A stretch of 64,000 nucleotides of DNA from Chrysophaeum taylorii. Lineage: Eukaryota; Sar; Pelagophyceae; Pelagomonadales; Pelagomonadaceae. Location of the stretch: NCBI GenBank assembly GCA_029834535.1, contig JAQMWT010000416.1:1-64000 (forward strand), read 5' to 3'. The first letter of the stretch is position 1, and every line of letters begins with the position of its first letter. Below the pieces are notes generated by a model that was given only the letters and a program-made list of their open reading frames with translations, did not search any database and was not told the origin of the DNA. The translations under genes were made by a program, and so were the position numbers. Positions 5,787-61,100 of the stretch are shown here, piece by piece.

Positions 5787-5878
5787 CCTGAGACAATCCA
5801 CTTTTGAATGAGGGTTTCTCGTTTGGTGTTCGAAATGTAGGCTAGGGCCTAGTTTTGAGCTTTCTTATCCGACCCTAG
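5787..5878. other. Unassigned spacer between R2 and G1
   Basis: About 90 bp with no ORF and no match to the other repeats in the window. The left end of the G1-homologous sequence begins at 'taacggtcgagtg' (5,879), so G1 has lost its 5' LTR and primer binding site here. Confidence 0.5.
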
Positions 5879-6271
5879 TAACGGTCGAGTGAGTGCGAAG
5901 CCGACGCATTTGTGGGTGAAGATCCAGGGGATCACGGGAACCGCCGCGGGGTTCATTTTACGTGATTCGGATCGAACGGGGAGCGGAGTCACTACGACTC
6001 ATTTAGGCAAACATCGTAAGACCTAACGAGGCAACGAAAGAGTAAGCCCTAACCTAGCTCGCGCGAGGCAGACCACCTCCCTGACGGCGAGCGACAGCAC
6101 CGGGAAGGCCGTCCATAGTCTTCGCGCGCAAGGCAAAAACTTCCGTAAGTCCAGCGCACCGGTACAGCGCGCAGTCAGACGGCTACCGGCAATTGTCGTC
6201 TGACGAAAATGAATACAACAAGCGAGTTGTGAGCGTTCGGATTAATCCTATTTTCCGGGCAAAGCGCGGTC

Positions 6272-8292: not shown

Positions 8293-8387
8293 GAAGAAGG
8301 CACCGCGAAAGAACGACCAGCGTATTCAATACGTACGACGTTCCGTGGGCGGACGCGCCTCACGACGAACGTGGTCAACCTTTACCG

Positions 8388-10712: not shown

Positions 10713-10745
10713 GCTCTGATCAACACAAAACATGACTATTCGATT

Positions 10746-11282
10746 TTGAACGCGTTTGTAAACAAGATTTTACTTGAGGGATGTCTCCCACGGTGCATAG
10801 TCACGGATAATGGAAATGAGTTCGCGATCAGGTTATTTCGCACGTTTGTTCGTCAATTCAACGTACGTTATCGTACTACCCTTCCGTATCACCCTCAGAG
10901 TAATCATACTGAGCGTGTCAATCGATTCATCAAAGCCTTCTTGCGAGCTGCGATCGATGAACAGCGTCAGCCAGATTGGTCGAATTTCCTCCTATATGTG
11001 GCATTCATGTACAATAGGATGTACATTCCGGGAACGAAGATTTCACCTTTCATGATGCGTACTGGCAAGCAACCCCTGTTACCACCCGATTACAATCTTT
11101 TGAATGAACAGCGTGATCTACCGCAATCACGTCATCCGATTTTGGTGGACTTTAAGAACAAGTTTGAATTTTATAGTCGACTCGTTACACGAGCTCACCA
11201 GAAAGCACAGAAGAGTCAAAAACTCAACTATGATGCCCACCAAATTGACATCCAGTTTTCCCCAGGTGATTATGTTCTGCGT
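10746..11282 (+). pseudogene. G1 integrase catalytic core, C-terminal part
   Basis: It continues the integrase after the nonsense codon at about 10,710. The second catalytic aspartate is in VTDNGNEF (about 10,801) and the catalytic glutamate in TERVNRFIK. The segment MYIPGTKISPFMMRTGKQPLLPP follows, as in G2. It runs up to FSPGDYVLR, where the SINE interrupts it at 11,283; the sequence resumes at 11,681 with a 14-bp duplication. With the SINE taken out, the reading continues into the GPY/F region. Confidence 0.85.
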
Positions 11283-11680
11283 CCTAACCCTGAGATCGCT
11301 AACCGTTGGTTGCGATGGAGGACGGCGCCTAACACGCTTGCTCCCTGCGGCGGCCCCGGCCGTCCCGGAGTGAGACGGTGCCTGCTCGCCTCCCGGGCTG
11401 GCCGGTTAGCACCCGTAAAGTCCGCGCTGGGATGGGGTTCGCTCGGTTGGGCAGAACGCGACGGACAGGTCGATTGTTCGTGGACCAACACGTCTGCGGC
11501 CTGCGACGCTTTTGCACGACCTCGCACAAGACCGCGCGCAGTGGCGGTCCACCATCAACAAGCCCGTCCTCGTCCGTCGCCCTGCCCCAACTGCGTGATT
11601 TTCCTCTGTGATTCCGTACCGGCTACTGCCGGTCCGGCCTGGCTCCCATGCTCGGGAGAGGTCTGAAGTTAGTTAGTTAG
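11283..11680 (+). mobile_element. SINE-like element, subfamily A, inserted in G1
   Basis: A 398-bp insertion starts 'cctaaccctgagatcgctaa' and ends in GTTA repeats. It is flanked by a perfect 14-bp target site duplication, attatgttctgcgt (11,269-11,282 and 11,681-11,694). G2 carries the uninterrupted site at about 43,588, so insertion and target duplication are directly visible. Related copies lie at 22,437-22,848 and 34,802-35,202. There is no coding capacity. A 3' tail repeat plus a target duplication of this size points to mobilisation by a non-LTR element's reverse transcriptase. No convincing tRNA-type A and B boxes were found. Confidence 0.85.
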
Positions 11681-12169
11681 ATTATGTTCTGCGTTTCGTG
11701 CCTAAGACGCGCCACAAGCTACGGCCCATTTGGCGCGGACCTTACATAGTTACCAGAAAGATCTCTCCCGTCGTTTACGAAATTCAAGACGTCAACGACG
11801 ATGATGCTGATTCGGTGGAAGAAGCGTATATATGTTGCCGAAGTCTACGAAGAATATGACCACGACAATGATACAGTTGAGCTTCACTACTATACCGATT
11901 TGGGACCGCGCGACGATCCTCGTGTTTTTGATCCTACTCAGCCTCTGGCTGATCGACTATTAAGACCCGAATACAAAGACCCGGACGGAGGTAGCTTCAC
12001 ACGCTTACGACCAAACATGGATGGCTGTGAACCCTGTGTGACTGATTTTCGCCCGGATGAAATCGATGTCCTCGTCACTAACTTCGGCCTCCACAGCAAC
12101 AAAGTTCCTGCTGATGTAGCTGACCGAGCTTATCGTACCATTCGTGAGCGTGACCTTCGTCACCCTTGA
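11681..12169 (+). pseudogene. G1 integrase C-terminus (GPY/F) and terminal domain
   Basis: Integrase resumes with RFVPKTRHKLRPIWRGPY, the GPY/F module of Ty3/gypsy integrases. A deletion of about 130 bp near 11,815 then removes the Pro/Ser linker seen in G2. A conserved C-terminal domain follows: YVAEVYEEYDHDNDTVELHYYTDLGP, then LRPEYKDPDG, then CVTDFRPDEIDVLV, ending at RDLRHP. A related domain closes G3 in another family. Its function is unknown; the position suggests a targeting or chromatin-binding role, as chromodomains have in other gypsy elements, but it has no chromodomain signature I can recognise. Confidence 0.7.
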
Positions 12170-12204
12170 AGTCGAGGACGACTTCATCTCAAGTAGGGGG
12201 CTCC

Positions 12205-12538
12205 TGTGGCAGTAACGCCCATCCCCCCACTTGCCTGCCTGCCACCTGACTTACCCTGATTGTTGCTCTGGTACTGACCTTGCAATTATGGGGGGGGAGT
12301 GTCATCTTGACACCCTCACCTGCGCTTCCACTGAACCCAATGTACCAGGCATTTGTATTGCTTTCTTGCTGTCTTCTTGCTATTACCCTCATTTGATTGT
12401 CCGATTTCGTGATGGCGTGAGGTATTACGCTGAGATCGGGCGTGTGGTGGTTTCACCCGCGGTTCGGGTTGGGAAAAAGGGTTGTTGAGGCCCCTGGTCC
12501 GGCCAAGAGGGGCGGGTGTCTGAGAGAAAACCACTACA
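12205..12538 (+). repeat. 3' LTR of G1, with polypurine tract just upstream
   Basis: The 334-bp LTR begins TGTGGCAG and ends CTACA. It is preceded at 12,191-12,204 by the purine-rich aagtagggggctcc, which would prime plus-strand synthesis. It aligns along its length with the G2 LTRs but differs from them more than they differ from each other. No flanking duplication can be tested because the 5' LTR is missing. Confidence 0.85.
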
Positions 12539-12624
12539 GAGGTCGGGACGTCGAAATAGCGATTGTCTCCGAGTAACGCGAGATTAAAGAACTCCGCGAC
12601 TGTGAAAACGGCCCAAACCTGGAG

Positions 12625-28887: not shown

Positions 28888-29218
28888 TGTGGCAGTAACG
28901 CCCATTTCCCCAACTTGCCTGCCTGCCACCTGACTTACCCTGATTGTTGCCCTGGTATTGACCTTGCATTTATGGGGGGGGTGTCATCTCGACACCTTCA
29001 CCTGCGCTTCCACTGGACCCAATGAACCGGGCATTTGTATTGCTTTCTTGCTGTCTTCTTGATATTGCCCTCATTTGATTGTCCGATTTCGTGATGGCGT
29101 GAGGTATTACGCTGAGATCGGGCGTGTGGTGGTTTCACCCGCGGTTCGGGTTGGGAGGAAGGGTTGTTGAGGCCCCTGGTCTGGCCAGGAGGGGCGGGTA
29201 TCTGAGAAAACCACTACA
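28888..29218 (+). repeat. 5' LTR of G2
   Basis: 331 bp, from TGTGGCAG to CTACA, preceded by target duplication acgt. It should contain promoter and polyadenylation signals, but I see no clear TATA box. It has a run of eight G at about 28,974. Confidence 0.92.
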
Positions 29219-29219: not shown

Positions 29220-29240
29220 TGGTCTCAGAAACGGGAATCG
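29220..29240 (+). promoter_or_regulatory. Primer binding site of G2
   Basis: One base after the LTR comes TGGTCTCAGAAACGGGAATCG. Its complement reads as a tRNA 3' end: loop TCGATT, T-stem CCCGT, acceptor TTCTGAG, discriminator A, CCA. The complementarity therefore fits the T-arm/acceptor layout over about 20 nt. The tRNA species cannot be named. Confidence 0.7.
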
Positions 29241-35804: not shown

Positions 35805-36312
35805 TCTGCGATGTCCTCGTCCCCGCGCCTTCCTCGCTCCCCGCACCTTCCCCGCCCCCGCGCCTTCCCCGTCCCCGCACCTTCCCCGTCCCCGCACCTT
35901 CCTCGTCCCCGCACCTTCCTCGTCCCCGCACCTTCCCCGTCCCCGCGCCTTCCTCGCTCCCCGCACCTTCCCCGCTCCCCGCCATATCCCCGCTCCCCGC
36001 CATATCCCCGTCCCCGCACCTTCCCCGTCCCCGCACCTTCCTCGTCCCCGCACCTTCCCCGTCCCCGCACCTTCCCTCCCCGCACCTTCCCCGCTCCCCG
36101 CGCCTTCCCCGTCCCCGCACCTTCCCCGTCCCCGCACCTTCCCCGCCCCCGCACCTTCCTCGTCCCCGCACCTTCCTCGTCCCCGCACCTTCCCCGTCCC
36201 CGCACCTTCCCTCCCCGCACCTTCCCCGTCCCCGCACCTTCCCCGTCCCCGCACCTTCCCTTCCCCGCACCTTCTCTTCCCCGTCCCCGCGACTTTCCCC
36301 GTTCCCCTTGAG
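35805..36312. repeat. 17-bp GC minisatellite at the second R4 joint
   Basis: About 28 C-rich units (cccgtccccgcaccttc) run up to 'ccttgagacacacggcctcc', where the R-family 5' region begins. Same unit as at 32.3-33.0 kb. Confidence 0.9.
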
Positions 36313-37288
36313 ACACACGGCCTCCAAGCCGTCTACGGCGACCTCGCAGATTGTTTCCACGACCCGCGGCGGCTCTTTCAGCGCGCCATTCTCACGCCCC
36401 GTCGAAACGATGTTGTCGATGCTGACAACGCGCGCATGACCGCGGCCTTTTTTTCCCGAAGACGAGGCGTCGGAGTTCTTTTCGGCCGACTAGGTTGGGT
36501 CGGAAGCCGACGCCTCGCTCTTTACAGTCGAGTTTTCAACTCCCTGACAACCAACGGCATGCTGACTTTGATCGCGAGCTTAAAGTCTTCGCAACCTCGA
36601 CCCGTCGCACGGCCACTGCAACGGTACCAGACACATGATCGATCATGTCGTGTCACCGAGGCTCCTCCAACCTGTATCCCTCAAGCCCCACCGACGCCAA
36701 ACGACCAACAAGAGCCAGAGGCAGACGCCCCGCAAGGTCGGCGTCCTCTTGCCCAAGCCCGTCTTCTGCCACGTCCAGCTCTACGTGGCTCTCTGTCGAT
36801 CGGCAACCCCGAGGATATGCTCTTCTGAGTCGACGACTCCACCCTACCCCACACGTGCTGCGCAATACCTATAAGCCCCCTCCCGGCGTCTACACGCGCA
36901 CTGTAGGTGAGCTTACTGGGCCAGGTGAACTTACGGGGGTTTGAGATTGGGACTAGGTGAACTGAGTGACCAGGTGAACTTACTGGGACCAGGTGAACTT
37001 ACTGGGGGTTTTAGAGTAAACTCAAAGGTTAGCGGCGTGTGCGGATCGAAGCACCTTAGATTGGCGGAGGCGAGAGCGACGAGCTCGAAGGAGTTGGTGT
37101 GAGCTAGGTGAACTTACTGACCAGGTGAACTTATATGAAGCTTACTGGACCAGGTGAACTTACTGGGGTTAGAGATTTGGACTAGGTGAACTTACTGACC
37201 AGGTGAACTTATATGAAACTTACTGGGATTAGGTGAACTTACTGGGGTTAGAGATTGGGACTAGGTGAACTTACTGGCCTGCACTTGT

Positions 37289-38083
37289 GGTAGTTTTAAC
37301 CACGAAAACGGTGTGTGTCCTGTGCCGGATAATCCCTCGAGGAAGAGGCGTGCTGCTCAGACGTTGACGACTGCGGGTTTTCCAGCAACGCCAGAGGGAC
37401 AGGAGCAATACCGACGGACGCTTTTAGCTGCAGCAGGACAGGCTTCAATGACTCAGCTGGCGCCGCGCGTTGTGCAACAGCCGCAGGTGGTTTACACAGC
37501 AGCACAGGTGCCAGGTGCAGGTCAACAGCAGCTGGTTGCAGGCACTCAGCAGCGTTTGGTTGCAGGCTCTCAACAACCGGTGGTCCGAAGGCAGCCCGCA
37601 GTGCAGCGGACCGCTCAGACCTCGGTGCGCCTGGAGGATCTGACTACGGCTCTCAACACGATGAACTTGATTCGTCAGGCACAGCAGACGGCTCCGCCGG
37701 ATAGAGGGCGACAATCTCAGAGAGCGAACCCTAGCCAGCACAATGATGGTGTCGCCGCTCAGTGGCTTGAAGTGCTTGGCGAAGATCAGGATGACACTAA
37801 GCGAGCGGACTACTGCACTGTGCAGTATTCTGAGCTCATGGAGGGCAACGTGTATGACGATGATGAGGTTGGGGGCGATGATGATAGCTTCTCTGCAGAA
37901 GGCTATTCCCCTGGTGACCCCATGGAACCTCCTTACTTTTTGGTCGTCACTGAAGATGCATGGGTGGAGGAGCAGGAGCAAAGTACCGAAGTGACTGGAG
38001 TTGCATCTAGAGTTCTCTCGGAAGACGAAGATAATCGTGACGAATTGGGGTATACGATTGTTCGTGTGGGACAAGATACCTAG
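37289..38083 (+). pseudogene. Gag C-terminus of G2: second half of CCHC knuckle and tail
   Basis: The first codons give SFNHENGVC, which with CLSCG at 31,732-31,746 makes a CX2CX4HX4C zinc knuckle for RNA binding. A Gln/Ala/Val-rich stretch follows (QQPQVVYTAAQVPGAGQQQL) and then an acidic tail (NVYDDDEVGGDDDSF). The TAG at 38,081 may be the natural Gag stop or a mutation: MDIVPPRDDCAERY continues in the same frame just behind it. The ACTC codons directly upstream belong to the R4 end, not to gag. Confidence 0.8.
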
Positions 38084-38117: not shown

Positions 38118-39105
38118 GTGCCGAGCGTTATGTTGCTCACCCTTCCATCTCTTCGGATTTCGATAATTTCTGCCCAGACTGCGTTGAATATCACTCAGGA
38201 TCCCGACCACCGTGAAAATAAAGCCGTAAGGTACGATGGCACGAGATCCGCCTCTTTGACGTATGTGCCTGTGGCTATCTCTTCGCAAGATGGTTCGAAA
38301 TATTCCATCATCGCTGCCGGTTTGGATGGCACGGCTGATTCCCCCTACATCGATCACCGCTTGTATCGCAAACTTGATCGTGACGGCAAAATCATCTATC
38401 GTCAGCCACTCCCTACTATTCGTACTCTAAACGGATCAGGAGGTTCGGGAGCTGCTATTCGAGAATGGGTCATTCTCTGGATCTCCTTGGTGCCGACGAC
38501 ATCCATGCTGCTCATGTTCTTCGTTGGTCAAACGAATGGGCAGTTACTATTAGGAGCACGAGAATTACGACTCTTGGGTACGATTTTGGATTATGCGACT
38601 GAGAGAGCTATTTTTCGGCGATCTGAAGTGACCATTGGAGTTCTCAAGAATCGGACTTCCGCCTCGCCACAAGACCAGCATGGAATTGTCCTTTACAATG
38701 ATGCATTCGATGCGATCCCGCAGGTAGTGCAGATGTTCCCGACAGCTAAGCTTGCTGTGCAATACAGAAATATCCAAACTTGGACGCCAATTGGCAAACC
38801 GTGGAGTTATGACAGTCTATTGCGGTCTATTCGTATCAGAGCGAGTCACCATCACGTTTCTCCCGGCGATCAGACTACTGAAACAGCGGAAGACCAACTT
38901 GAATGCCCTGCAGGCGAGGAAGATATCACCCCTCATTTCGCGTACGTGACGAGTACTCGATTTCTTCTTCCAAGCCAACCGTACTTCTTGGAGATGGAGT
39001 GCGATGTGCCGCTGGAAAGGGTCACGTATTCCGACCTTATCGATCACTCCTCCAAGATCTCCGCCTTGTACCTGGCTCCTATTCATCGTATTGCGCTGAT
39101 GAGCC
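38118..39105 (+). pseudogene. Aspartic protease region of G2
   Basis: This segment matures the polyprotein in related elements. From about 38,225 it reads KAVRYDGTRSASLTYVPVAI, then a retropepsin-like active site region SIIAAGLDGTADSPYIDHRL (about 38,307-38,366), and the C-terminal signature LLLGARELRLLGTILDY. The active-site triplet is D-G-T where the family has D-T-G/D-S-G. After the protease comes an acidic linker (LECPAGEEDITPH). A frameshift at about 39,100 moves the reading into the frame of the methyltransferase (NEVHVAVEHIGDEPIGIDPE). An upstream frameshift near 38,215 separates it from the gag frame. Confidence 0.65.
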
Positions 39106-39940
39106 CAACGAAGTTCATGTGGCTGTGGAGCACATTGGTGACGAACCCATTGGTATCGACCCCGAAGTCCCGGTGGTCGAAGGCGAGATCATGCCGCATG
39201 AAGGATGTGTCAACATGGAGCTAGAAGCCACTGATGACGTGTGTCATGCCACTCTTACGGCTGCTGTTGACGACGACGAAGTCGAGGAGGATGTCTTGAG
39301 TGACAGACCTCCTCCTCAGCCACCTCCAGATGAAGAAGTGAAAAAAACACCGGAAATGGAGATGAAGGCGACTGCTAAGGAGCTGCTATCTAAGCTCGCC
39401 TCCTTGGTTTGGATACCCATCACCTACACCTTTGTCGTCGTCTACTTTGCTGGCGCTGGAGGATCAACGTTGGGTATCCGGCGATGCAACGAGCTATATG
39501 GCAGTTCACTTCGCATTGTCCTGGCTTTGGATGCTCGTCCTCGAGCCCGAGCCACCTTTGAAATCATTTTTCCGAAGATTCCCTGTGTTTTGCATGAGTT
39601 GGGGAAATCTCATCGTCGTACATACGACCTGGTGTTGTCGTATTTACACTCAGATTTTTGGAAGCATTCTTATTTTCACACCAGTCCGCCGTGTATCTAT
39701 GGATCGACTGCCAATTTGCACTACAGGGACGCACGCAAAGGCGCTACTATTACTTCTTGGGTCCTGCGTCACTTCCGCAACGCACCTTATGTGATTGGAC
39801 GATGGACGCTCGAGCAGGAACCATCAGTGATCCCTTTGTGCATCACCAATTTTATGTGCCGCGTATTGTTGATTTCTATAGTATCACGCCAGAGTTGCTG
39901 TGCTCGCGCACACGCCTACTTGCGTGCAATGTTCGCTTGA
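38903..39940 (+). CDS. G2 methyltransferase, N-terminal part (motifs I-VI)
   Basis: A C5 cytosine DNA methyltransferase catalytic domain. The real reading in this frame starts near 39,100. Motif I, the S-adenosylmethionine-binding FAGAGGSTLG, is at 39,446-39,475. Motif II/III follows as RIVLALDARPRA. Motif IV, SPPC, has its catalytic cysteine codon at 39,692. Then come ITSWVLRHF and a motif VI-like LEQEPS (39,809-39,826), with Gln where the family has Asn. At about 39,830 a lost T (G1 still has it) shifts the frame, and the rest of this ORF is out of frame. The domain lies inside pol, between protease and RT, as in G1 and G3. It would methylate DNA at C5, presumably the element's own cDNA or its target. 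Confidence 0.88.
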   Translation: MPCRRGRYHPSFRVRDEYSISSSKPTVLLGDGVRCAAGKGHVFRPYRSLLQDLRLVPGSYSSYCADEPNEVHVAVEHIGDEPIGIDPEVPVVEGEIMPHEGCVNMELEATDDVCHATLTAAVDDDEVEEDVLSDRPPPQPPPDEEVKKTPEMEMKATAKELLSKLASLVWIPITYTFVVVYFAGAGGSTLGIRRCNELYGSSLRIVLALDARPRARATFEIIFPKIPCVLHELGKSHRRTYDLVLSYLHSDFWKHSYFHTSPPCIYGSTANLHYRDARKGATITSWVLRHFRNAPYVIGRWTLEQEPSVIPLCITNFMCRVLLISIVSRQSCCARAHAYLRAMFA

Positions 39941-42096
39941 ACCTGCCTTTATTATCGCGTGTACCACCGAATTTAAGGGACCGTTTTAGGCCAGCGTTGG
40001 GATTTACAGGTGGTCACCCGCTCATTATGGTGAACAGTTTCTCCTCTACGCGCCCGGCTATCGGCCCTGCCTTCACAGTGACGCGCAATAAGCTCCACCT
40101 AGGACCTCATTTCTCGAACACCCGTCCACTCACGTTGCAGATGCACCAGGAAATTATGACCGTTCCTGCTACGTGGCAATGGGGTGCGACAGTTTCAGAG
40201 ACAGCAGCTATGAAGATGCTTGGCAGTATAGTGCCACCCGCGACTATGACGCGGATTGCGCTAGCAGTGCACAATTCGTTTGACCCTTCACCTCGAAATT
40301 TGGGTAAGTTGCGGAATATTGCGACGACTACGCTAGCCCAACCTGATCACTATATTCTACGGTTTTCACCTTTTGCTGTAGAGTCGCGCATTCCAACGCT
40401 CGACCCTGCCACTCGAAGTGTATCATGGATTGCGCCCGATGAACTCTATTCTCCTGCGCGTCCTGCACCATCAGCTGCTGCCCCCACCACCCCGCCACCA
40501 CCTTCAGTTACATCGCCTGGGACGGCTTCATCTTTTGCAGGGGGCACCGTCGCCACTGCTGTTATGCAGAGCAACCAAGTTGATAACCAGCCCTCCGCGA
40601 CTGATGAAGAAGAAGGCACCGCGAAAGAGCGACCAGCGTATTTCAATACGTACGACGTTCCGTGGGCGGACGCGCCTCACGACGAACATGGTCAACCTTC
40701 ACCGGTGATGCCTCCTCATTTAGCGGATCAGGAGAGCATGCAGGTCATCCCTCCGACCGCCGCGCAGGTCGAAGAGGTGATGACTGAATTGGGTATTACC
40801 GAGCATCCTGCTTTAGATGATGACGAGAAAATGATGATGAAGCATTTAATCTCGTATTCGTGGGCATTTTTCGATGATGTGATGAGACCTGTTGATTCAC
40901 CTGAAGTGAAGATCCGGTTCAAAGAAGAGAACCCAACTCCCGTCAAACTCTCGCCATATCGGTTGTCGAAAGAAAAGATTGAATGTTTGCGGATGCAGAT
41001 TGAAGCATGGACCCGAGACGGAGTTATTCGTCCTGCGAATTCTCCATGGGTTTTCCCTATTTTGATGTTGCATAAGAAAGGTGCCGAGCCTGGCACTTCC
41101 AATGCTTACAGAGCAGCTGTCGACCTACGGCGCCTCAATGCATTGCTCAAGGATGATAGCTGGCCGAGTGTGAGCATGGCTGACGCGTTGATGTTTCTCA
41201 TTGACAAGTTTTGTCGTTCCAGTTTAGTTATTCGTTGGGGCTATCACAATTTACGATTGTCGCTAGATGCACAAGATGTGGTCACCTTCACTAGTCCTCT
41301 GGGAGCGTACAGCTACATGCGTCTACCTTTGGGAGCCAAACCAGCCGGAAGTTTGTTTTGCAAGCAGCTGAACACTGACTTGTCGCAATGGCTATATCGT
41401 GATCTCGTGGCATATATCGACGATATTCTCGCCGGTCGCGCAGATACAAAGAATCACTTGCAGTGCCTTGTGCAAGTTATTCCCCATCTCGCCTTGAGGG
41501 GGTACAGCGCCAAGATCAAGAAGATTCATTTTATGCAAGAAGTCATTGAGTTTTTGGGTCATTTATCTACTCCGAACGGACTTATTCCATCACCAAGATC
41601 TTTAGAAGCCATCAGACACATGCCAATCCCTGGCACTTTGTCGGATGCTGACCCTAAGAAGCAAGTGCGATCTTTCCTTGGAATGGGGAGTTTTTGCCGG
41701 CGTTATGTAAGGAATTTTGCGAAAGTTGCAGAGCCATTAAGACAACTGACATTGCCGGACGTGAAATTCAAGTGGACGAAAGAGTGTCAGGGAGCTTGGG
41801 AAGCCATCATCGAGGCTATTGTCACTTCGAAGGGCGTCTATCATCCTGATTGCTCGTTACCTTTTTACATTCGAACTGATGCTTCCGCGCATGGGCTGGG
41901 TGCTTACCTATTTCAAAAGTACCAGTCGTTGACGACGATGGAAGAGAAAGAATCGAAGAGAGAGTTATCGAGTACTGGAGTCGAACCGTGCCTAAGTCGA
42001 TGGGGAAGTACGATCCTCGGCGCTTGGAACTCCTCGCAGTACTCTCTGCTCTCGAAAATTTCCGATTTTATATCGAAGGTCATCAGACGAAGTTAG
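39658..42096 (+). CDS. G2 methyltransferase C-terminal part, linker, RT and RNase H start
   Basis: From about 39,830 this frame carries motif VIII (CSRTRLL, 39,901-39,921), a short target-recognition region, motif IX (RPLTLQMHQEIMTVP, about 40,123) and motif X (LGSIVPPATM, about 40,219). A Pro/Ser-rich linker follows (APTTPPPPSVTSPG). Then come conserved YDVPWADAP, the gypsy RT (VKLSPYRLSKEKIECLR, AVDLRRLN, RLPLGAKPAG, catalytic YIDDI at about 41,416) and the start of RNase H (RTDASAHGLGAYLFQ). A missing A at about 41,925 (G1 has AAAAA) shifts the frame, so the last about 50 codons are wrong. The first about 57 codons are the out-of-frame shadow of motif IV-VI. Confidence 0.9.
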   Translation: MEAFLFSHQSAVYLWIDCQFALQGRTQRRYYYFLGPASLPQRTLCDWTMDARAGTISDPFVHHQFYVPRIVDFYSITPELLCSRTRLLACNVRLNLPLLSRVPPNLRDRFRPALGFTGGHPLIMVNSFSSTRPAIGPAFTVTRNKLHLGPHFSNTRPLTLQMHQEIMTVPATWQWGATVSETAAMKMLGSIVPPATMTRIALAVHNSFDPSPRNLGKLRNIATTTLAQPDHYILRFSPFAVESRIPTLDPATRSVSWIAPDELYSPARPAPSAAAPTTPPPPSVTSPGTASSFAGGTVATAVMQSNQVDNQPSATDEEEGTAKERPAYFNTYDVPWADAPHDEHGQPSPVMPPHLADQESMQVIPPTAAQVEEVMTELGITEHPALDDDEKMMMKHLISYSWAFFDDVMRPVDSPEVKIRFKEENPTPVKLSPYRLSKEKIECLRMQIEAWTRDGVIRPANSPWVFPILMLHKKGAEPGTSNAYRAAVDLRRLNALLKDDSWPSVSMADALMFLIDKFCRSSLVIRWGYHNLRLSLDAQDVVTFTSPLGAYSYMRLPLGAKPAGSLFCKQLNTDLSQWLYRDLVAYIDDILAGRADTKNHLQCLVQVIPHLALRGYSAKIKKIHFMQEVIEFLGHLSTPNGLIPSPRSLEAIRHMPIPGTLSDADPKKQVRSFLGMGSFCRRYVRNFAKVAEPLRQLTLPDVKFKWTKECQGAWEAIIEAIVTSKGVYHPDCSLPFYIRTDASAHGLGAYLFQKYQSLTTMEEKESKRELSSTGVEPCLSRWGSTILGAWNSSQYSLLSKISDFISKVIRRS

Positions 42097-42655: not shown

Positions 42656-43693
42656 GTGTTGTATAAGGTCGATGATTCAGCTTCTCAACGTCTTATTGTG
42701 GTCCCTCAGTCTATGCAGAAGCGTGTGATCGCCATGCATCACCGAGGCTTGTTCGGAGGCCATATAGGACGAGATTCCACAGCGAATCAAATCTTAGAAC
42801 GGTATTGGTGGCCAAACGTCTCATCATCCGTTAATGAGTTTGTCAATGCCTGCATTATTTGCCAGAAGATTCGATCCACCATGCCTAGGCGCCATGGCTT
42901 GCTCTGTCAACCGAATCGCGTCGGAGACTGCTATGTCCTAGGTATGGATTTGATTGGACCTCTGCGAAGCGCTGACCTGTACACGTGTATACTCGCAATG
43001 TACGATGCAGCATCACATTTCTTGAAATTAGCTCTGATCAACACGAAGCATGATTATTCGATTTTGAACGCGTTTGTGGACAAGATTTTACTTGAGGGAT
43101 GTCTCCCACGGTGCATAGTCACGGATAATGGAACTGAGTTCGCGAACAGGTTATTTCGCACGTTTGTTCGTCAATTCAACGTACGTCATCGTACTACCCT
43201 TCCGTATCACCCTCAGAGTAATCATACTGAGCGTGTCAATCAATTCATCAAAGCCTTCTTGCGAGCTGCGATCGATGAACAGCGTCAGCCAGAGTGGTCG
43301 AATTTCCTCCCATATGTGTCGTTCATGTACAATAGGATGTACATTCCGGGAACGAAGATTTCACCTTTCATGATGCGTACTGGCAAGCAGCCCCTGTTAC
43401 CACCCGATTACAATCTTTTGAATGAACAGCGTGATCTACCGCAATCACGTCATCAGATTTTGGTGGACTTTAAGAACAAGTTTGAATTTTATAGTCGACT
43501 CGTTACACGAGCTCACCAGAAAGCACAGGAGAGTCAAAAACTCAACTGTGATGCCCACCAAATTGACATCCAGTTTTCCCCAGGTGATTATGTTCTGCGT
43601 TTCGTGCCTAAGACACGCCACAAGCTACGGCCCATTTGGCGCGGACCTTACATGGTTACTAGAAAGATCTCTCCCGTCGTTTATGAAATTTAA
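42656..43693 (+). CDS. G2 integrase
   Basis: It inserts the cDNA into chromosomal DNA. The zinc finger is HHRGLFGGH with CIICQK. The catalytic DDE triad is MDLIGP, VTDNGTEF and TERVNQFIK, all intact. A region MYIPGTKISPFM follows, then the GPY/F module LRPIWRGPYMVTRKISPV. A TAA at about 43,690 (G1 has CAA) cuts it from the terminal domain. The ORF start is not a biological start; in the parent it is part of the polyprotein. Confidence 0.92.
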   Translation: MLYKVDDSASQRLIVVPQSMQKRVIAMHHRGLFGGHIGRDSTANQILERYWWPNVSSSVNEFVNACIICQKIRSTMPRRHGLLCQPNRVGDCYVLGMDLIGPLRSADLYTCILAMYDAASHFLKLALINTKHDYSILNAFVDKILLEGCLPRCIVTDNGTEFANRLFRTFVRQFNVRHRTTLPYHPQSNHTERVNQFIKAFLRAAIDEQRQPEWSNFLPYVSFMYNRMYIPGTKISPFMMRTGKQPLLPPDYNLLNEQRDLPQSRHQILVDFKNKFEFYSRLVTRAHQKAQESQKLNCDAHQIDIQFSPGDYVLRFVPKTRHKLRPIWRGPYMVTRKISPVVYEI

Positions 43694-44256: not shown

Positions 44257-44588
44257 GGTGGCAGTAACGCCCATTTCCCCCACTTGCCTGCCTGCCACCT
44301 GACTTACCCTGATTGTTGCCCTGGTATTGACCTTGCATTTATTGGGGGGGGTGTCATCTCGACACCTTCACCTGCGCTTCCACTGGACCCAATGTACCGG
44401 GCATTTGTATTGCTTTCTTGCTGTCTTCTTGATATTACCCTCATTTGATTGTCCGATTTCGTGATGGCGTGAGGTATTACGCTGAGATCGGGCGTGTGGT
44501 GGTTTCACCCGCGGTTCGGGTTGGGAGGAAGGGTTGTTGAGGCCCCTGGTCTGGCCAGGAGGGGCGGGTATCTGAGAAAACCACTACA
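44257..44588 (+). repeat. 3' LTR of G2
   Basis: 332 bp; starts GGTGGCAG (first T mutated) after the polypurine tract aagtagggggctcc, ends CTACA, followed by target duplication acgt. It differs from the 5' LTR at four bases and one indel by my reading. Confidence 0.92.
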
Positions 44589-55931: not shown

Positions 55932-56492
55932 TGCGTGCCAGTCGCTCTTTCAGACCCCATGGAAACCGGGCAAGTTTTCGTTGCTACGTCTTCTGGATAC
56001 GAGCAACCTGGGGTAGTCGATGGAATGTGTTCTTCTCCCCCCTGTGAGGATCACGACAAGTTCGCAGCTCGAGTGGCGATCTCCTCTACCCAGGATGTGC
56101 CGACCGTGATTACTCAAGGTGAAGTTCTCGCTTTGGGCGATATAGATCGCTTTGATGACGAGCTGAATGTTGAAACGGTCGACGATTTAACGAAGGATGG
56201 TGAAGCCAAATCAGACAAGGCTAACCTATCGTTCACTGTTTCGGTCGCAAGCCATCTGACTCGAGGCGATGCGGCTCCCGAACCGATGCTTTTGAGCTCG
56301 GTGCAGAAGGCGTCTCCTTCTGCCGATAAGAAGAAGTATTCTCGTCAAGAATCGCTCGGTAACGACGATTCGACCGACGAACCGACGAGGAGGAAAAGAA
56401 ATGCCGAGAAGTTACAGAAGGCGAGAATCGCCGAAGGCTTGAAAAGTCCACTGGGTGCCGATCACGTATCGCAAGGTTGTGATGCTCTTTAG
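55932..56492 (+). CDS. G3 acidic linker upstream of the methyltransferase
   Basis: 185 open codons, rich in Asp, Glu, Ser and Val (LGDIDRFDDELNVETVDDLT), ending with a basic stretch (RRKRNAEKLQKARIAEGL). It corresponds to the acidic linker between protease and methyltransferase in G2 (ELEATDDVC, DDDEVEEDVL). A frameshift near 56,450 separates it from the methyltransferase frame. No domain of its own. Confidence 0.55.
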   Translation, partial: CVPVALSDPMETGQVFVATSSGYEQPGVVDGMCSSPPCEDHDKFAARVAISSTQDVPTVITQGEVLALGDIDRFDDELNVETVDDLTKDGEAKSDKANLSFTVSVASHLTRGDAAPEPMLLSSVQKASPSADKKKYSRQESLGNDDSTDEPTRRKRNAEKLQKARIAEGLKSPLGADHVSQGCDAL

Positions 56493-57048
56493 CGGCGCCG
56501 GAGGAAGTACTTTAGGACTGCAACGAGCGAATGAGTTGTGCGGGACGTCGTTTCGAGTCGTCCTTGCTCTTGACTCTTCAACAGCTGCCAACAAGATTAA
56601 CCAGAAGAATTTTCTGAAGATACCTGTGGTTCAGCACACTCTCTGCGGACGATATGACTCGACCCTCCGATTGATCAAGGCTTATTTGCCTGAAGCGGAA
56701 TGGTCATCGTCGATGTGTATGGCGTCTCCACCCTGCGTTCATTCAGCACTCTGCGACTTGACTTCCAGAGATGTTGGCAGGGGAGTTACGGCCACTAGTT
56801 GGACGATGAAGCTGTGCAAAATGGCTGGCTTCATGATGTGGCTGATTGAACAGGAGGCGTCCATTATTTCTTATATAGCGCGTTTACACCCTTACGTGTA
56901 CGTCGTCAATTTTCATGATATCACGCCCACTTTGATGAGCTCTCGCGTGCGATTGTTGGTTTTCAGTCACCCACTGCACTTGCAAGAGGCTCCGAAGACA
57001 TGTGCGAATATGCAACAAGTTTGCTGCAGCTTTAGGTTACGCTCATGA
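56455..57048 (+). CDS. G3 C5 cytosine methyltransferase, motifs I-VIII
   Basis: Motif I is VVMLFSGAGGSTLGL (56,476-56,520), followed by FRVVLALDSS (motif II). Motif IV is MASPPC, with its cysteine codon at 56,734. Then come a helical segment (TSWTMKLCKMAGFMMW), motif VI-like LIEQEAS, VYVVNFHDITPT and motif VIII SSRVRLLVF. G2 aligns along the whole length (FAGAGGSTLG, TSPPC, LEQEPS, CSRTRLL). The same Gln replaces the motif VI Asn. The frame is lost near 57,010, and motifs IX-X follow in the next ORF. Catalytic cysteine and cofactor loop are intact in this copy. Confidence 0.88.
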   Translation: MPITYRKVVMLFSGAGGSTLGLQRANELCGTSFRVVLALDSSTAANKINQKNFLKIPVVQHTLCGRYDSTLRLIKAYLPEAEWSSSMCMASPPCVHSALCDLTSRDVGRGVTATSWTMKLCKMAGFMMWLIEQEASIISYIARLHPYVYVVNFHDITPTLMSSRVRLLVFSHPLHLQEAPKTCANMQQVCCSFRLRS

Positions 57049-57382
57049 ACGCCACCTGCTCCAGCTGAATAATCTCGGCTCGTCCCAAGAAGCAACAGAT
57101 ACGGCTTACACCGTTACGCGAGTTCCTCTTCGTTTGGGACCGCATCGCTCGGACACTCAGCTTTTGACTCTCGAGATGACGGCCGAGTTGCTCACGATGC
57201 CGCTGGGCCATGATTGGGCTAGCTTGTCTAAGACAGATTCGTTCAAACATTTAGCGTCTGTCGTCCCTCCAGACACTCTTGCGATTTTAGCAGTCGATCT
57301 GCACAACTCCGTGACCAGACGTTCCCGCCAAAATGGCGAAGTCATGCCGACCGCGTTGAGCCCGACAGATCGATCCTTTTAG
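57002..57382 (+). CDS. G3 methyltransferase, motifs IX-X
   Basis: The reading starts in register at about 57,012 (AAALGYAHERHL). It gives TVTRVPLRLGPHRSDTQLLT, motif IX (LLTLEMTAELLTMPLG, about 57,158) and motif X (LASVVPPDTLAILA, 57,250-57,291), matching RPLTLQMHQE and LGSIVPPATM of G2. The ORF then runs into the linker and stops at 57,380 (TAG), where G2 continues. Confidence 0.82.
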   Translation: MRICNKFAAALGYAHERHLLQLNNLGSSQEATDTAYTVTRVPLRLGPHRSDTQLLTLEMTAELLTMPLGHDWASLSKTDSFKHLASVVPPDTLAILAVDLHNSVTRRSRQNGEVMPTALSPTDRSF

Positions 57383-57447: not shown

Positions 57448-57879
57448 GTGTCGTTAAGTGGGTGTCAAAAGATGATCTCCAGGATCCCACTAAATGGGAA
57501 CCGCCAGATGTCCCTATGCTTCCGCTTCCAACAGATGCGCCGGGGACGGCTCATGCTTTTTCTGCTGCCCCCCCCCCGACAATCGAGAGTGGACGTTCCG
57601 CCGGATCCTGAACCCGAACAGGAGCCGAACGTAAGGAGCGAGCCGAATGTGCGCGTCAAATGTGAAAAGATCAATAAGAGCCACCCTGAGGTGAGGTTCA
57701 AATACGAAGAAAAGTTCGATGTGCCATGGAAGGATGCGCCGCGCGACGCGGACAGTGTACCGTTACCACAGACTCCGGAGCACGTCAAGGACAATGATGC
57801 GATGAAAGTCATAACTTCGACGAAGGAAGAAGTCGAAAAGGTTGTTCGAGAACTGGGACGACAACCCGCATCTGGATGA
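57448..57879 (+). CDS. G3 linker between methyltransferase and RT
   Basis: From about 57,640 it reads VKCEKINKSHPEVRFKYEEK, FDVPWKDAPRDADSVPLPQT and EEVEKVVRELG, matching YDVPWADAP and EEVMTELG of G2. The early part is out of frame relative to G2. Frames change again at about 57,860 into RT. Confidence 0.6.
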   Translation: MSLSGCQKMISRIPLNGNRQMSLCFRFQQMRRGRLMLFLLPPPRQSRVDVPPDPEPEQEPNVRSEPNVRVKCEKINKSHPEVRFKYEEKFDVPWKDAPRDADSVPLPQTPEHVKDNDAMKVITSTKEEVEKVVRELGRQPASG

Positions 57880-58465
57880 GGATGCGAAGATGATGTTGAG
57901 CCACTGCGTGCAATACGCGTGGGCCTTTTTTGATCCGATTATGAGACCCGTGGACTCGCCACCGGTTTCTCTACGATTTAAAGACACAACCCCACGACCG
58001 ATCAAGATGACGCCTTATAGGTTGACGCCAGCAAAGCTCGAGTGTCTCAGAAAGCAGATCACTGAGTGGTGTCGCGATGGAGTCATCCGACCGGCGAACT
58101 TTCCGTGGGGATTCCCTGTACTGATACTGCCTAAGAAGGGAGCAGAGGCTGGGACGTCGAATGCTTTTCGTGCTGCTGTTGACTTGCGTCGGCTCAATGA
58201 TCAGCTGGTCAACGACAGTTGGCCGAATATTCGTCAAGGTGATGCTTTGGCTTTTCTTGCCATGCGCCGTTGGCGGACGTGCATTGATATTCGAAGGGGT
58301 TATCATAACCTACGTTTGGACGCCGCCGCTCAGGACGCCGTTACGATGGTTAGTCCACTTGGAGCCCATAGTTTCTTGCGCTTGCCTCTGGGAGTAAAAA
58401 CAGCAGGAGCTCTCTTCTGTAAGCACATGGCTAGCGATTTGTCCTTATTGTCGACGATATTATGA
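57842..58465 (+). CDS. G3 reverse transcriptase, N-terminal part
   Basis: It has AWAFFDPIMRPVDSP, IKMTPYRLTPAKLECLRKQI, DGVIRPANFPWGFPVLILPK, AVDLRRLN, DIRRGYHNLRLD and RLPLGVKTAG, all standard for Ty3/gypsy RT. A deletion of about 10 codons plus a frameshift at about 58,440 removes the sequence just before the catalytic box, which appears in the next frame as LIVDDIMMG. Confidence 0.85.
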   Translation: MFENWDDNPHLDEDAKMMLSHCVQYAWAFFDPIMRPVDSPPVSLRFKDTTPRPIKMTPYRLTPAKLECLRKQITEWCRDGVIRPANFPWGFPVLILPKKGAEAGTSNAFRAAVDLRRLNDQLVNDSWPNIRQGDALAFLAMRRWRTCIDIRRGYHNLRLDAAAQDAVTMVSPLGAHSFLRLPLGVKTAGALFCKHMASDLSLLSTIL

Positions 58466-59256
58466 TGGGATCGGATGAACTCCACCGACATTTACAAGTC
58501 TTGATGGAAGTGCTGTGCCATTTAGCGCAGCGAGGATATAGTGGACGAACTTCGAAGTTCCACCTCCTCAAGGATGAAATCGAGTTTTTGGGACACATTT
58601 CGACTCCGGAAGGCTTGAAGCCGAGTCCCAAGACGTTAGAAGCGTTGCAGCAGAAGCCGATTCCCGGTACGTTGCCGAACACGTCCCCGAAGACCCAGAT
58701 TCGATCTTTCATCGGTATGAGCAGCTATTGCCGCCGATATGTGAAGAGTTATTCGAAGATTGAGGAGCCGCTGAGGCGATTGTGTCTTGAAGGCGTTAAG
58801 TTTGAGTGCACGCCTGAGTGCCAAAAGCCGTGGGACACGATCATCGAAGCTTTGGTGGACTCTCGCGGAGTTTATCATCCTGACTACGATCTTCTTTTTC
58901 AGATCCGCTCGGATGCTTCCAAGGATGGTCTGGGCGCGTATCTTTTTCAGCTCGTGGAAGTCAATGACGAAACCGGCAAGGTGACACGAGAGGAACGAGT
59001 AGTTGAGTATTGGAGCCGAGCTGTGCCGAAAGAGATGCGGAACTATGAGCCTCGCCGGCTAGAGCTACTGGCGGTTATTCTTTCTCTTGAGCATTTCCGC
59101 TCTTATATCGAAGGTCACAAGACGATCCTTGAATCGGATCTTCTCAACTGGACGTCTTTACGAAGCACTCGTCTGCGCAGTTGGCTCGATGGGCGATGCG
59201 GCTCGCCAATTTTGATCCTGAATTGGGTTACAAACCAGGGAAGTCGCCGGAAATGA
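58443..59256 (+). CDS. G3 RT catalytic box, thumb and RNase H start
   Basis: It begins in register with LIVDDIMMGSDELHRHLQ, followed by KFHLLKDEIEFLGHISTPEG, QIRSFIGMSSYCRRYVKSYS (connection domain) and RNase H (QIRSDASKDGLGAYLFQ, VEYWSRAVPKEMRNYEPRRL, ETILESD region). After about 59,145 the frame is wrong; the RNase H end continues in the next ORF. Confidence 0.85.
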
Positions 59257-59888
59257 GTATCCCTGACTGTCTCTCTCGCAATCCTATAGATCATGTCATC
59301 GAGACGGATGAGTATGGTGAACCCTTGAACCACGCGTATCTAGTGTGCCAAGAACTTCCTCGCCCTGTCTATGATGAAGGAGTACCCTTACCTGGGTGCC
59401 ATGTCATGCTGTCATTTGTTACGACTGAGTTACCTGTGGAGGAAGAAGAAGAGGATCTCGATGATCCGATGCAATTGGTCACGTCTCATGCTACGAGACA
59501 ACGTCAGATGCAACGTCTGCAGACCCAACCTAGTATTTTCCGTGATGCCGATGATTACCAAGAGTACATCGACAAGATTCCGGATAATTTGACTTTGGAA
59601 GAGATAGTCAAAGAGCAGATCACTGATGCTATTTGCGAGGACATTCGTTATCGCATGGCTCAGGGCCATTCTCTTCGTCGGTACGGAGCCAATTATCGCT
59701 ATCAAGTGGTGAAAGGAGTTTTCTACCGTGCCGCACCTGACTTGCACCCGATGATAGTCGCACCCCGAACTTTACGGACGCGCATCATCCGATTATACCA
59801 TGACACACCTCTCAATGGTGGTCATATGGGTCGTCAAAGTACAGTGCAGTCGATACTTGAACTTTTTTTGGTGGCCCCACATGTCTAA
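59181..59888 (+). CDS. G3 RNase H end, linker and integrase zinc finger
   Basis: It reads ARWAMRLANFDPELGYKPGK and PDCLSRNPID (RNase H end), an acidic linker, then the integrase N-terminus (TLRTRIIRLYHDTPLNGGHM). The run of T at about 59,862 shifts the frame inside the zinc finger (FWWPHMS is in the next ORF). Confidence 0.8.
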   Translation: MARWAMRLANFDPELGYKPGKSPEMSIPDCLSRNPIDHVIETDEYGEPLNHAYLVCQELPRPVYDEGVPLPGCHVMLSFVTTELPVEEEEEDLDDPMQLVTSHATRQRQMQRLQTQPSIFRDADDYQEYIDKIPDNLTLEEIVKEQITDAICEDIRYRMAQGHSLRRYGANYRYQVVKGVFYRAAPDLHPMIVAPRTLRTRIIRLYHDTPLNGGHMGRQSTVQSILELFLVAPHV

Positions 59889-60126
59889 TGAGGTGGGTGC
59901 TTATATTGCTGGTTGCATAGTGTGCAAGAAAGCTCGTACGCCTGAACCAAAGAGAGCAGGTCTTCTTCAGCAACCGGTGTATGAAGGTGATTGCGCCGTC
60001 CTTTGTATGGGTTTGTTCGGACCTTTGCCCAGTGCTGGTCCCGAGACATATCTGATCATCTTTTTTGATCCATTTTCTCATTTCTTGATTCTTGACGTAC
60101 TACACCACATATATATTGACTGCTGA
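59800..60126 (+). pseudogene. G3 integrase, first catalytic segment
   Basis: It carries CIVCKK of the HHCC finger and the region VLCMGLFGPL. The position of the first catalytic Asp (MDLIGP in G1/G2) is Gly (GGT for GAT), so the active site is destroyed even without the frameshift at about 60,105. Confidence 0.82.
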
Positions 60127-60143
60127 GTCTATCCTCGAGTCTT

Positions 60144-61100
60144 TTGTCGTCTTCTGTCGCGATTATATTATTCAAAGGTTATCTACCTCAGAGGATTCGT
60201 ACCGACAATGGGAAAGAGTTCGTCAACAAGTTGATGGAAGAGTTTTGTCATCTCTTCAATGTTCGGTGTAGTACCACGATTCCGCATCATGCCCAGGCTA
60301 ATCCTGCGGAAAGGGTCAAGCGCTTTATCAAGGCTTTCCTCCGTGCGTGTCTTCAAAACCGCAAGATCACGGACTGGCCCGAATTCGCGGAGTACATTGC
60401 TTTTTGCTACAATCGCAAGTTTATTCCGGGAACTCAGATTCCACCTTTCATGCTTCGTCTCAACCGGCAGCCTCTATTGCCAATTCGTCTCAACCGGCAG
60501 CCTCTATTGCCAACAGATTATACGACCATGGATCTTGATGTCCGCCGCCTGCCGAAAACTCGCTCCGATGTTGTGGCAGAGACTCGCGAGAGGCTGAAAT
60601 TCTATACCGCTACGGTGAACGAAGCTCGCGAGAAGGCTCTTCGTAAACAACGTCTCGCTTACAATGCGGACCATGTCGATGTGGAGTATGAAGAAGGTTC
60701 ACATGTTCTGCTCTACATCCCTTTCCTTCAGAACAAGCTTCGACCGGAATGGCGCGGTCCATTCGTTATTTTGGAGCGCTTGTCTCCGGTCACTTACAGG
60801 ATTGAGCCTCTTGATTCTCCTCCTGAACGCCCCTGTGATGGTTTCTCCAGTGGTCGATCGAGCTATGCCCAAACCCAAGGAGACCTTTCGGGCGGTAAGT
60901 TCGTTGTCTTTCGGATTCCAGATAACAAACGGTCCGATTGGCGAAAGAAGATTTACGTTGCTGAAGTTTATGAGTCCTATGATTTTGTGAATGATCGAGT
61001 CGCTCTGCATTTTTATGCTGATCTTGGTCCCCATGACAAGGTTTCTTATTACAAGCCTAGCTCACATCTCTCTACTCGCAAGCTTAAGCCGGAATATTAG
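60144..61100 (+). CDS. G3 integrase core end, GPY/F and start of the terminal domain
   Basis: The second Asp is in RTDNGKEF and the Glu in PAERVKRFIK. A 30-bp tandem duplication (60,453-60,512) repeats RLNRQPLLP. The GPY/F module is RPEWRGPFVILERLSPVTY. The terminal domain begins KFVVFRIPDNKRSDWRKKIY and YVAEVYESYDFVNDRVALHF, and is cut by TAG at 61,098, where G2 has a Lys codon (RPEYKDP). Confidence 0.85.
   Translation: MSSSVAIILFKGYLPQRIRTDNGKEFVNKLMEEFCHLFNVRCSTTIPHHAQANPAERVKRFIKAFLRACLQNRKITDWPEFAEYIAFCYNRKFIPGTQIPPFMLRLNRQPLLPIRLNRQPLLPTDYTTMDLDVRRLPKTRSDVVAETRERLKFYTATVNEAREKALRKQRLAYNADHVDVEYEEGSHVLLYIPFLQNKLRPEWRGPFVILERLSPVTYRIEPLDSPPERPCDGFSSGRSSYAQTQGDLSGGKFVVFRIPDNKRSDWRKKIYVAEVYESYDFVNDRVALHFYADLGPHDKVSYYKPSSHLSTRKLKPEY

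What the first reader, a model, noticed from the sequence alone, without database searches (positions are those of the whole stretch)
39410..40260. Ty3/gypsy retrotransposon with a C5 cytosine DNA methyltransferase inside pol, between protease and RT
Seen: FAGAGGSTLG (motif I), SPPC (motif IV with catalytic Cys), SRTRLL (VIII), RPLTLQMHQE (IX) and LGSIVPP (X), in canonical order, between a retropepsin-like region and a gypsy RT in an element with LTRs, primer binding site and target duplication. Known: C5 methyltransferases were, as I recall, reported in retrotransposons of dinoflagellates and charophytes. Inferred: the enzyme marks the element's own cDNA or target to control silencing or integration. 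The position inside the polyprotein and the lineage may be new.
Basis: partly seen in the sequence, partly recalled or inferred. Interest (0 to 1): 0.95.

Follow-up and report, generated by a model that had tools for sequence, protein, structure and literature searches.

The report
Retrotransposons carrying a DNA-methylating enzyme
In the genome of a photosynthetic alga, abundant retrotransposons (jumping genes that copy themselves through RNA) carry their own cytosine-methylating enzyme, and two different kinds of retrotransposon there seem to have captured such an enzyme separately, which suggests that marking DNA with methyl groups helps these elements to persist.

Summary
Window 39404-40281 encodes a C5-cytosine methyltransferase (MTase) domain upstream of reverse transcriptase (RT) in a Ty3/gypsy element with 330-bp LTRs. 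The window copy is broken: motifs I-VI and VIII-X lie in different frames. Other copies in the same genome keep the domain open (L002: PF00145 37.5 bits, cut-off 22). An RT-only search found 83 places of this family; 70 have MTase sequence upstream. Of the other 13, two were read, and both carry the same clean loss of the MTase segment, so a sister form without the enzyme also multiplies. Between subfamilies the MTase evolves at dN/dS 0.06-0.09 (RT 0.03, linker between them 0.35-0.37): it is under selection. A second Ty3 lineage, also in this window, carries a homologous MTase (about 43% identity). A Ty1/copia family carries an MTase not detectably similar to the first. Host C5-MTases found: DNMT2 and DNMT5 only. 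Retrotransposon DNMTs are known (dinoflagellates; KnitGypsy-Dnmt3 in a charophyte), also inside a gypsy Pol, so this is a new variant of a known kind. Most likely it methylates the element's own cDNA or fresh insertion, a mark DNMT5 could maintain. That is inferred, not shown; an RNA target is not excluded.

The parts
28889..29218 (+). 5' LTR of the family A element
   Evidence: 330 bp, 98.8% identical to 44258-44588 by blastn; 3 substitutions and 1 indel
29220..29236 (+). putative primer-binding site TGGTCTCAGAAACGGGA, one base after the LTR end
   Evidence: read; not matched to a tRNA of this genome
29770..31584 (+). gag pieces, then split from pol by nested repeats (about 31.6-37.26 kb)
   Evidence: Retrotrans_gag 17.6 bits, below its cut-off of 24.1; 30883-31410 matches L066 residues 1-167 at 39%; repeats
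37265..38083 (+). end of gag with a Cys/His stretch
   Evidence: CTCGSFNHENGVC at 37280-37318; no Pfam hit over cut-off
38316..38579 (+). protease-like stretch (LDGTADS ... LLLGARELRLLG), atypical active-site motif
   Evidence: motif and position only; Pfam negative even at E 10
39404..39832 (+). MTase part 1: motifs I, II, IV, VI
   Evidence: motif coordinates; PF00145 12.2 bits alone; homologous to L002 and L066
39796..40281 (+). MTase part 2: motifs VIII, TRD-like stretch, IX, X, in the RT frame
   Evidence: PF00145 profile 260-321, 16.6 bits alone; motif coordinates
41074..41562 (+). reverse transcriptase, YIDD at 41413-41436
   Evidence: PF00078 42.7 bits
41773..42185 (+). RNase H, in two frames in this copy
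   Evidence: PF17919 43.4 bits in one frame, PF17917 69.4 bits in the other
42701..43213 (+). integrase zinc-binding domain and core
   Evidence: PF17921 64.7 bits, PF00665 36.2 bits
44243..44258 (+). polypurine-tract-like stretch before the 3' LTR
   Evidence: read
44258..44588 (+). 3' LTR of the family A element
5878..12544 (+). second, decayed copy of the same family (MTase remains within 7212-8325, LTR-like end 12205-12544)
   Evidence: blastn, tblastn, motifs
56452..57343 (+). MTase of a second Ty3 lineage (family C): motifs I-VIII in one frame, IX-X in another
   Evidence: 45% and 36% identity to the L066 MTase; motifs
57860..61097 (+). RT, RNase H and integrase pieces of the family C element
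   Evidence: 65% identity to L066 RT; Pfam, RNase H over cut-off, RT and integrase pieces below it

Best explanation
The element is a Ty3/gypsy LTR retrotransposon whose Gag-Pol includes a C5-cytosine MTase between the protease-like region and RT. SHOWN: the domain has every main C5-MTase motif in order, is present in most copies, is open in many, and evolves under purifying selection close to that of RT. INFERRED: it is made as part of Pol, packaged with RT, and methylates the element's own cDNA or its fresh insertion. In a host whose only nuclear DNA MTase found is DNMT5, a maintenance enzyme where it is well studied (Cryptococcus), a new insertion would otherwise stay unmethylated. The element brings its own initiating enzyme, and DNMT5 then copies the mark. 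The likely gain is that the new copy looks like resident, packaged DNA and is tolerated, at the price of being quieter. The same pressure would explain why Ty3 and Ty1 elements of this genome each hold an MTase after a protease-like region. The enzyme is not strictly needed in cis, since an MTase-minus sister form has multiplied; it may be served in trans by complete relatives.
For: PF00145 above cut-off in uninterrupted copies: L002 37.5 bits, L066 38.7, L071 26.6, L072 27.0. GAGG of motif I, SPP of IV, EQE of VI, RxR of VIII, the IX glutamate and VPP of X are invariant in a six-row alignment of two lineages 42% identical; the catalytic Cys is kept in 5 of 6 rows. dN/dS against L066: MTase 0.06 and 0.08, RT 0.03 and 0.03, linker 0.35-0.37; MTase of L066 or L067 against six other copies 0.06-0.09. 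MTase upstream of RT in 70 of 83 family A places found with an RT-only query. Family C: 810 first-look candidates, 138 of 150 scored rows stop-free in the part searched. Ty1/copia family B: RVT_2 119.1 bits and PF00145 32.1 bits in one 1901-aa open frame; its MTase is not detectably similar to A. Host DNMT5: 482 bits to PDB 7r76, SNF2 in the same 2086-aa open frame. DNMT2. Of 57 PF00145 places, 52 are family B by direct match or overlap, 2 are host genes, 3 unassigned. Precedent: SymbioDIRS-Dnmt3 domains methylate CG de novo in yeast (PMC5890265, parts 1-4 of 7 read).
Against: No activity or methylome data. Two copies, C335 and C394, share one clean loss of the MTase segment (L066 positions 2588-3695), and C394 reads through it in one frame; 11 more RT places of 83 showed no MTase and were not read. 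So mobility without the enzyme in cis is possible. Motif VI is EQE, not ENV. The CpG-decay test shows no CpG-specific signal: pairwise C-to-T differences are 3.6% at CpG, 5.6% at CpT, 2.3-2.5% at CpA and CpC. KnitGypsy-Dnmt3 showed no activity in yeast, which its authors call inconclusive (PMC5890265). An intron-split DNMT gene could be missed, so DNMT5-only is provisional. DNMT5 as maintenance-only is known from Cryptococcus (passages of PMC10538959), not from this alga. dN/dS is higher within subfamilies (0.18-0.31 in five listed pairs, 0.33 for L066-L067). The structure prediction failed (pLDDT 36).
Confidence: 0.43

Rival explanations
1. Self-restraint: the element methylates and so silences itself and its relatives after integration, which limits damage to the host; the gain is long-term persistence and not tolerance of the single copy. 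MTase-minus forms are then escapees.
For: An MTase-minus form sharing one loss junction occurs in at least two copies 97.8% alike, as expected if losing the enzyme is a short-term gain. The idea is raised in PMC5890265 (part 4). LTR CpG o/e is 0.57 against 1.04 in the window pol.
Against: LTR GpC o/e is also low (0.82 and 0.78), so composition may explain part of it. Many family C places share the same score, which suggests recent bursts of MTase-plus elements.
Confidence: 0.24
2. The enzyme methylates RNA, such as the element's genomic RNA or the tRNA primer, as DNMT2-type enzymes do, helping RNA stability, packaging or reverse transcription.
For: SPPC in motif IV is recalled as DNMT2-like; a tRNA (cytosine-38) methyltransferase (9hgm) is among the three weak PDB matches of the A+C profile (E 1.8). 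The authors of PMC5890265 raise RNA as a target for SymbioLINE-Dnmt.
Against: The best PDB match, also not significant, is a chain named cytosine-specific methyltransferase, 8yf3 (E 0.35, 0.12). All these matches are too weak to assign a class.
Confidence: 0.2
3. The domain has lost catalysis and is kept as a nucleic-acid-binding or structural part of Pol.
For: Motif VI has changed (EQE for ENV), and three of the copies listed lack the catalytic Cys (L016, L026, L030).
Against: Catalytic and AdoMet motif residues are among the invariant positions between A and C, and the Cys is present in both lineages.
Confidence: 0.08
4. The match is an artefact: a chance motif series, or a host gene caught between element pieces.
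For: The window pieces alone are below the Pfam cut-off.
Against: Presence in 70 of 83 RT places, one uninterrupted frame with RT in L002 and L066, and selection.
Confidence: 0.02

Closest known systems
KnitGypsy-Dnmt3 of the charophyte Klebsormidium nitens (PMC5890265)
   Same: C5 DNMT inside the Pol polyprotein of an LTR gypsy element; multi-copy; purifying selection reported
   Different: That enzyme is Dnmt3-class and its repeat arrangement is DIRS-like; here conventional LTRs, an enzyme that my searches could not assign to Dnmt3 or any class, another host lineage, and a Ty1/copia family with an MTase in the same genome
SymbioDIRS-Dnmt3 of Symbiodinium (PMC5890265)
   Same: DNMT in the Pol frame with RT; forms with and without DNMT coexist; host with DNMT5
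   Different: DIRS element with tyrosine recombinase; Dnmt3 class
SymbioLINE-Dnmt of Symbiodinium (PMC5890265)
   Same: Orphan, lineage-specific DNMT in a retrotransposon at high copy
   Different: LINE, DNMT in a separate upstream ORF, CG-depleted; here LTR elements, fused, CpG o/e 1.01-1.29 in the coding stretches tried
ParB-like plus N4-cytosine/N6-adenine methyltransferase protein of Sola1-1_Ec32, Ectocarpus (passages of PMC12477816)
   Same: Transposon-borne DNA methyltransferase in a stramenopile
   Different: DNA transposon, separate gene on the opposite strand, not a C5 enzyme

Membership tests
C5-cytosine methyltransferase (PF00145) | Profile match over the curated cut-off | tested here: met
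   L002 37.5 bits against 22; L066 38.7, L071 26.6, L072 27.0. The window pieces alone do not reach it
C5-cytosine methyltransferase (PF00145) | Motifs I, IV (catalytic Cys), VI, VIII, IX, X in order | tested here: met
   motif VI is EQE instead of ENV (motif names recalled)
C5-cytosine methyltransferase (PF00145) | Transfers methyl to cytosine C5 | not testable with these tools
   needs expression and bisulfite, EM-seq or mass spectrometry
Ty3/gypsy LTR retrotransposon | Domain order RT - RNase H - integrase with RVT_1-type RT, two LTRs | tested here: met
Ty3/gypsy LTR retrotransposon | Retropepsin upstream of RT | tested here: inconclusive
   D-G-T-A and LLG motifs at 38316-38579; Pfam negative
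Dnmt3 class (as in KnitGypsy-Dnmt3) | Detectable similarity to Dnmt3 sequences, or a place in the Dnmt3 clade | tested here: inconclusive
   no Dnmt3 chain among PDB matches, but no other class matched significantly either; no tree was made
Ty1/copia element (family B) | RVT_2-type RT downstream of integrase in one frame | tested here: met
   L070: rve at 1016-1110 (17.3 bits, below cut-off 32.6), RVT_2 at 1686-1890 (119.1 bits)
DNMT5 (host gene L032) | DNMT5-type MTase and SNF2 in one protein | tested here: met
   482 bits to 7r76 (recalled as Cryptococcus Dnmt5); SNF2 at C621:19899-20237, same 2086-aa open frame

The most novel reading that the evidence does not exclude
In this alga, retrotransposons are the only source of de novo cytosine methylation: host DNMT5 only maintains, and MTases captured separately by Ty3 and Ty1 elements initiate methylation on new insertions, including, in trans, those of MTase-minus sisters. 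The host methylome would then depend on its parasites.
Probability: 0.14. Interest if true: 0.93.

Novelty: new variant of a known kind. Interest (0 to 1): 0.73.

Why it matters
It adds what seems to be a third host lineage to the two reported in 2018, with enzymes that could not be assigned to a known class, and shows an MTase in two LTR superfamilies of one genome at a similar place in the polyprotein. Repetition of this kind argues for a shared advantage. A host with DNMT5 alone would be a clean place to ask how methylation starts on new DNA where only a maintenance enzyme is known. The MTase-minus sister form is a natural knock-out beside its MTase-plus parent in the same nucleus, so the enzyme's effect on methylation could be read directly from long-read data.

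Tried and rejected
Protein database searches with the A domain (region search), the A profile and the B profile gave no hit; viral contigs none for A, B or A+C; prokaryote genomes none for A+C. The origin of either MTase is therefore open. No phylogeny was made: similarity beyond the motifs is low, and no reference set was at hand.

A structure prediction from two window pieces alone (alignment A4) failed at pLDDT 36 and was not searched.

CpG decay: inconclusive. A fourth MTase family was suspected at window 15980-16942 and 52827-53264 from weak tblastn hits and rejected: the frames are rich in H, T and P, and Pfam finds nothing.

Programmed frameshifting at the frame change inside the window MTase: considered and rejected, since 23 of the 27 aligned copies do not have it (3 of 30 loci were left out of that alignment for length).

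My first count, MTase in all 54 scored copies, was dropped as a test: that query itself holds MTase residues and favours copies that have it. The RT-only search replaced it and showed the MTase-minus form.

Host identity: 18S was never obtained, because the search machine did not answer in nine tries. A light-harvesting protein (one of 84 matches) is closest to fucoxanthin proteins in the PDB, and no silicon transporter was found, so a non-diatom ochrophyte such as a pelagophyte is my inference only.
Full report
1. What was claimed and whether it is there. The claimed motifs are all present and in order. The domain runs from about 39404 to 40281, a little wider than the claim. It is split: motifs I, II, IV and VI are in one frame (39404-39832), motifs VIII, IX and X in the frame that continues into RT (ORF 39598-42096). 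On their own the two window pieces stay under the PF00145 cut-off (12.2 and 16.6 bits against 22), but they sit at the expected ends of the profile. The window lies in G000, contig C416, a 70.8 Mb assembly, and other copies there settle the identity: the uninterrupted domain of L002 gives 37.5 bits, E 2.4e-9. NCBIfam finds only its C5-MTase superfamily, dcm, at 18.7-35.3 bits, under that model's cut-off of 100.65; the best PHROGs matches are named DNA methyltransferase.

2. The element. LTRs 28889-29218 and 44258-44588 differ by 3 substitutions and 1 indel; a TGG... site follows the 5' LTR; a purine-rich tract precedes the 3' LTR; flanks agree at 4 of 5 bases. Gag (29770-31584) is separated from pol by nested repeats, parts of which occur elsewhere in the window. 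RT, RNase H (in two frames) and integrase are over their Pfam cut-offs. The protease is only inferred: an atypical D-G-T-A stretch and LLG motif in the right place, negative in Pfam.

3. How many copies carry it. One search, whose query includes MTase residues, is biased towards copies that have it, so I searched with an RT-side query alone (window 40600-41922; 95 of 1317 first-look candidates scored). 83 places are family A-like (73% identity or more); 12 others are family C at 59-60%. Of the 83, 66 have MTase sequence within 2.5 kb upstream or in the same row, and 4 more (C530, C416:8316, C440, C367:112400): 70 of 83. Of the 13 left I read two. C335 and C394 keep the region upstream of the MTase and the linker downstream at 95.6-99.0% DNA identity to L066, and both lack L066 positions 2588-3695, which hold the MTase (2627-3505). 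The two are 97.8% alike over the shared stretch, and C394 reads through the junction in one frame. So an MTase-minus form exists in more than one copy; since its flanks match L066 closely and the more distant family C has the MTase in the same place, loss is likelier than original absence. The other 11 (C510:65408, C322:108061, C6, C209, C248, C361, C51, C311:80412, C268, C79, C494) were not read; some matches start inside the query, and C510 has MTase 3.8 kb upstream. In one search (142 rows, 135 of 906 candidates scored) 36 family A rows cover the whole domain without a stop. Counts are lower bounds by the tool's notice, and may also be inflated by uncollapsed haplotypes: places on C25 and C521, and on C10 and C297, look alike.

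4. Two more lineages. (i) Family C, a second Ty3 lineage, has an element in this same window (MTase 56452-57343; 45% and 36% identity to L066 in two frames; RT 65%). The part of its MTase that I searched has 810 first-look candidates; 150 were scored, all at 83% identity or more, 138 without a stop. Its RT part has 935 candidates, 150 scored. These are the best-scoring rows, not a random sample. (ii) Family B is Ty1/copia: L070 holds a protease-like DGGAS stretch (Pfam negative), MTase (PF00145 32.1 bits), integrase (17.3 bits, below cut-off) and RVT_2 (119.1 bits) in one 1901-aa open frame. Its MTase has 648 candidates, 121 scored, 131 rows. Profile comparison finds no similarity between A or A+C and B (hhalign probability 0.1). 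These alignments are shallow, so this supports, but does not prove, separate captures.

5. Selection. Against L066 (subfamily A') the MTase has dN/dS 0.06 and 0.08, RT 0.03 and 0.03, and the linker between them 0.35-0.37. The RT-RNase H stretch gives 0.18 in one pair; L066 seems to hold a local frame change there. In one search, L066 or L067 against six other copies gives 0.06-0.09; L066-L067 0.33; five within-A pairs listed 0.18-0.31; C (L071-L072) 0.06; B 0.09-0.37 over 21 pairs; A against C is saturated. Only stop-free copies were compared. In a six-row alignment of A and C (42% identity) GAGG of motif I, SPP of IV, EQE of VI, RxR of VIII, the glutamate of IX and VPP of X are invariant, and the catalytic Cys is kept in 5 of 6 rows.

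6. The host. It has 84 light-harvesting matches; the one tested is closest to fucoxanthin proteins in the PDB; no silicon transporter was found. A non-diatom ochrophyte is my inference. Of 57 PF00145 places (123 of 474 candidates scored), one is DNMT2 and one DNMT5: 482 bits to 7r76, with SNF2 in the same open frame. All 28 other fetched places are family B. Of the remaining 27, 24 overlap family B places, and 3 (C23, C216, C683:59821) are unassigned. Six-frame search can miss intron-split genes. Passages of PMC9998398 report DNMT5 with heavy linker methylation in a pelagophyte, and DNMT6 in Pelagophyceae; I assigned no place to DNMT6. Passages of PMC10538959 describe DNMT5 as a maintenance enzyme and Cryptococcus as lacking de novo activity.

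7. How it works. The best-supported reading is self-methylation of cDNA or new insertions with maintenance by DNMT5. Shown: domain, frame, presence in most copies, selection. Inferred: DNA as target, de novo activity, timing, benefit. The MTase-minus form shows that the enzyme is not needed in cis for copying; action in trans, or self-restraint that such forms escape, are both open. The CpG test is neutral: coding CpG o/e is 1.01-1.29 in the element stretches tried against 1.07-1.46 in six host gene loci, LTRs 0.57, and C-to-T differences among 25 copies are highest at CpT, not CpG.

8. What is known. PMC5890265 (parts 1-4 of 7 and passages read) reports SymbioLINE-Dnmt, SymbioDIRS-Dnmt3 and KnitGypsy-Dnmt3, the last inside a gypsy Pol, and DNMT-less relatives beside DNMT-bearing ones. 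So position in Pol is not new. A 2025 survey (passages of PMC12344493) repeats those cases; the word stramenopile does not occur in its main text. The Ectocarpus transposon paper (passages of PMC12477816) reports a different methyltransferase in a DNA transposon. Nine paper searches listed no report of C5-MTase retrotransposons in stramenopiles that I recognised; apart from the five papers named in this report I saw search listings only. The library lacks most subscription journals and preprints, and the 2025 survey does use the word Copia for one earlier case.

9. Verdict. Real, under selection, and an interesting new variant of a known kind. Identity as a C5-MTase domain in a Ty3 pol is close to certain (about 0.95); the mechanism is a little under even.

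Noticed in passing
window 31412-37288: Nested repeats (parts also at 403-724, 4239-5666, 11282-11680, 21962-23312, 25467-26919, 53905-54204) split gag from pol; an insert like 34.8-35.2 kb lies inside the MTase of copy L008.
   Followed up: partly
window 32260-33056 and 35786-36276: Minisatellite-like arrays with a 17-base step, alike in the two places, in both orientations.
   Followed up: no
window 15272-20518 (-) and 50503-53636 (+): Long open frames rich in His, Thr and Pro without any Pfam match; a 1749-aa frame in the first.
   Followed up: partly
window 62593-63999 (-): Ty1/copia reverse transcriptase (RVT_2 110.5 bits), cut by the window end.
   Followed up: no
G000 contigs C88, C539, C518, C390: Light-harvesting genes in close groups with equal or near-equal scores, such as five on C539 and five on C88.
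   Followed up: no
G000 contigs C25/C521 and C10/C297: Matches at near-equal positions and scores on contig pairs suggest uncollapsed haplotypes, so copy counts may be inflated.
   Followed up: no
G000:C330:461269-464029: Twelve ubiquitin repeats in two open frames.
   Followed up: no
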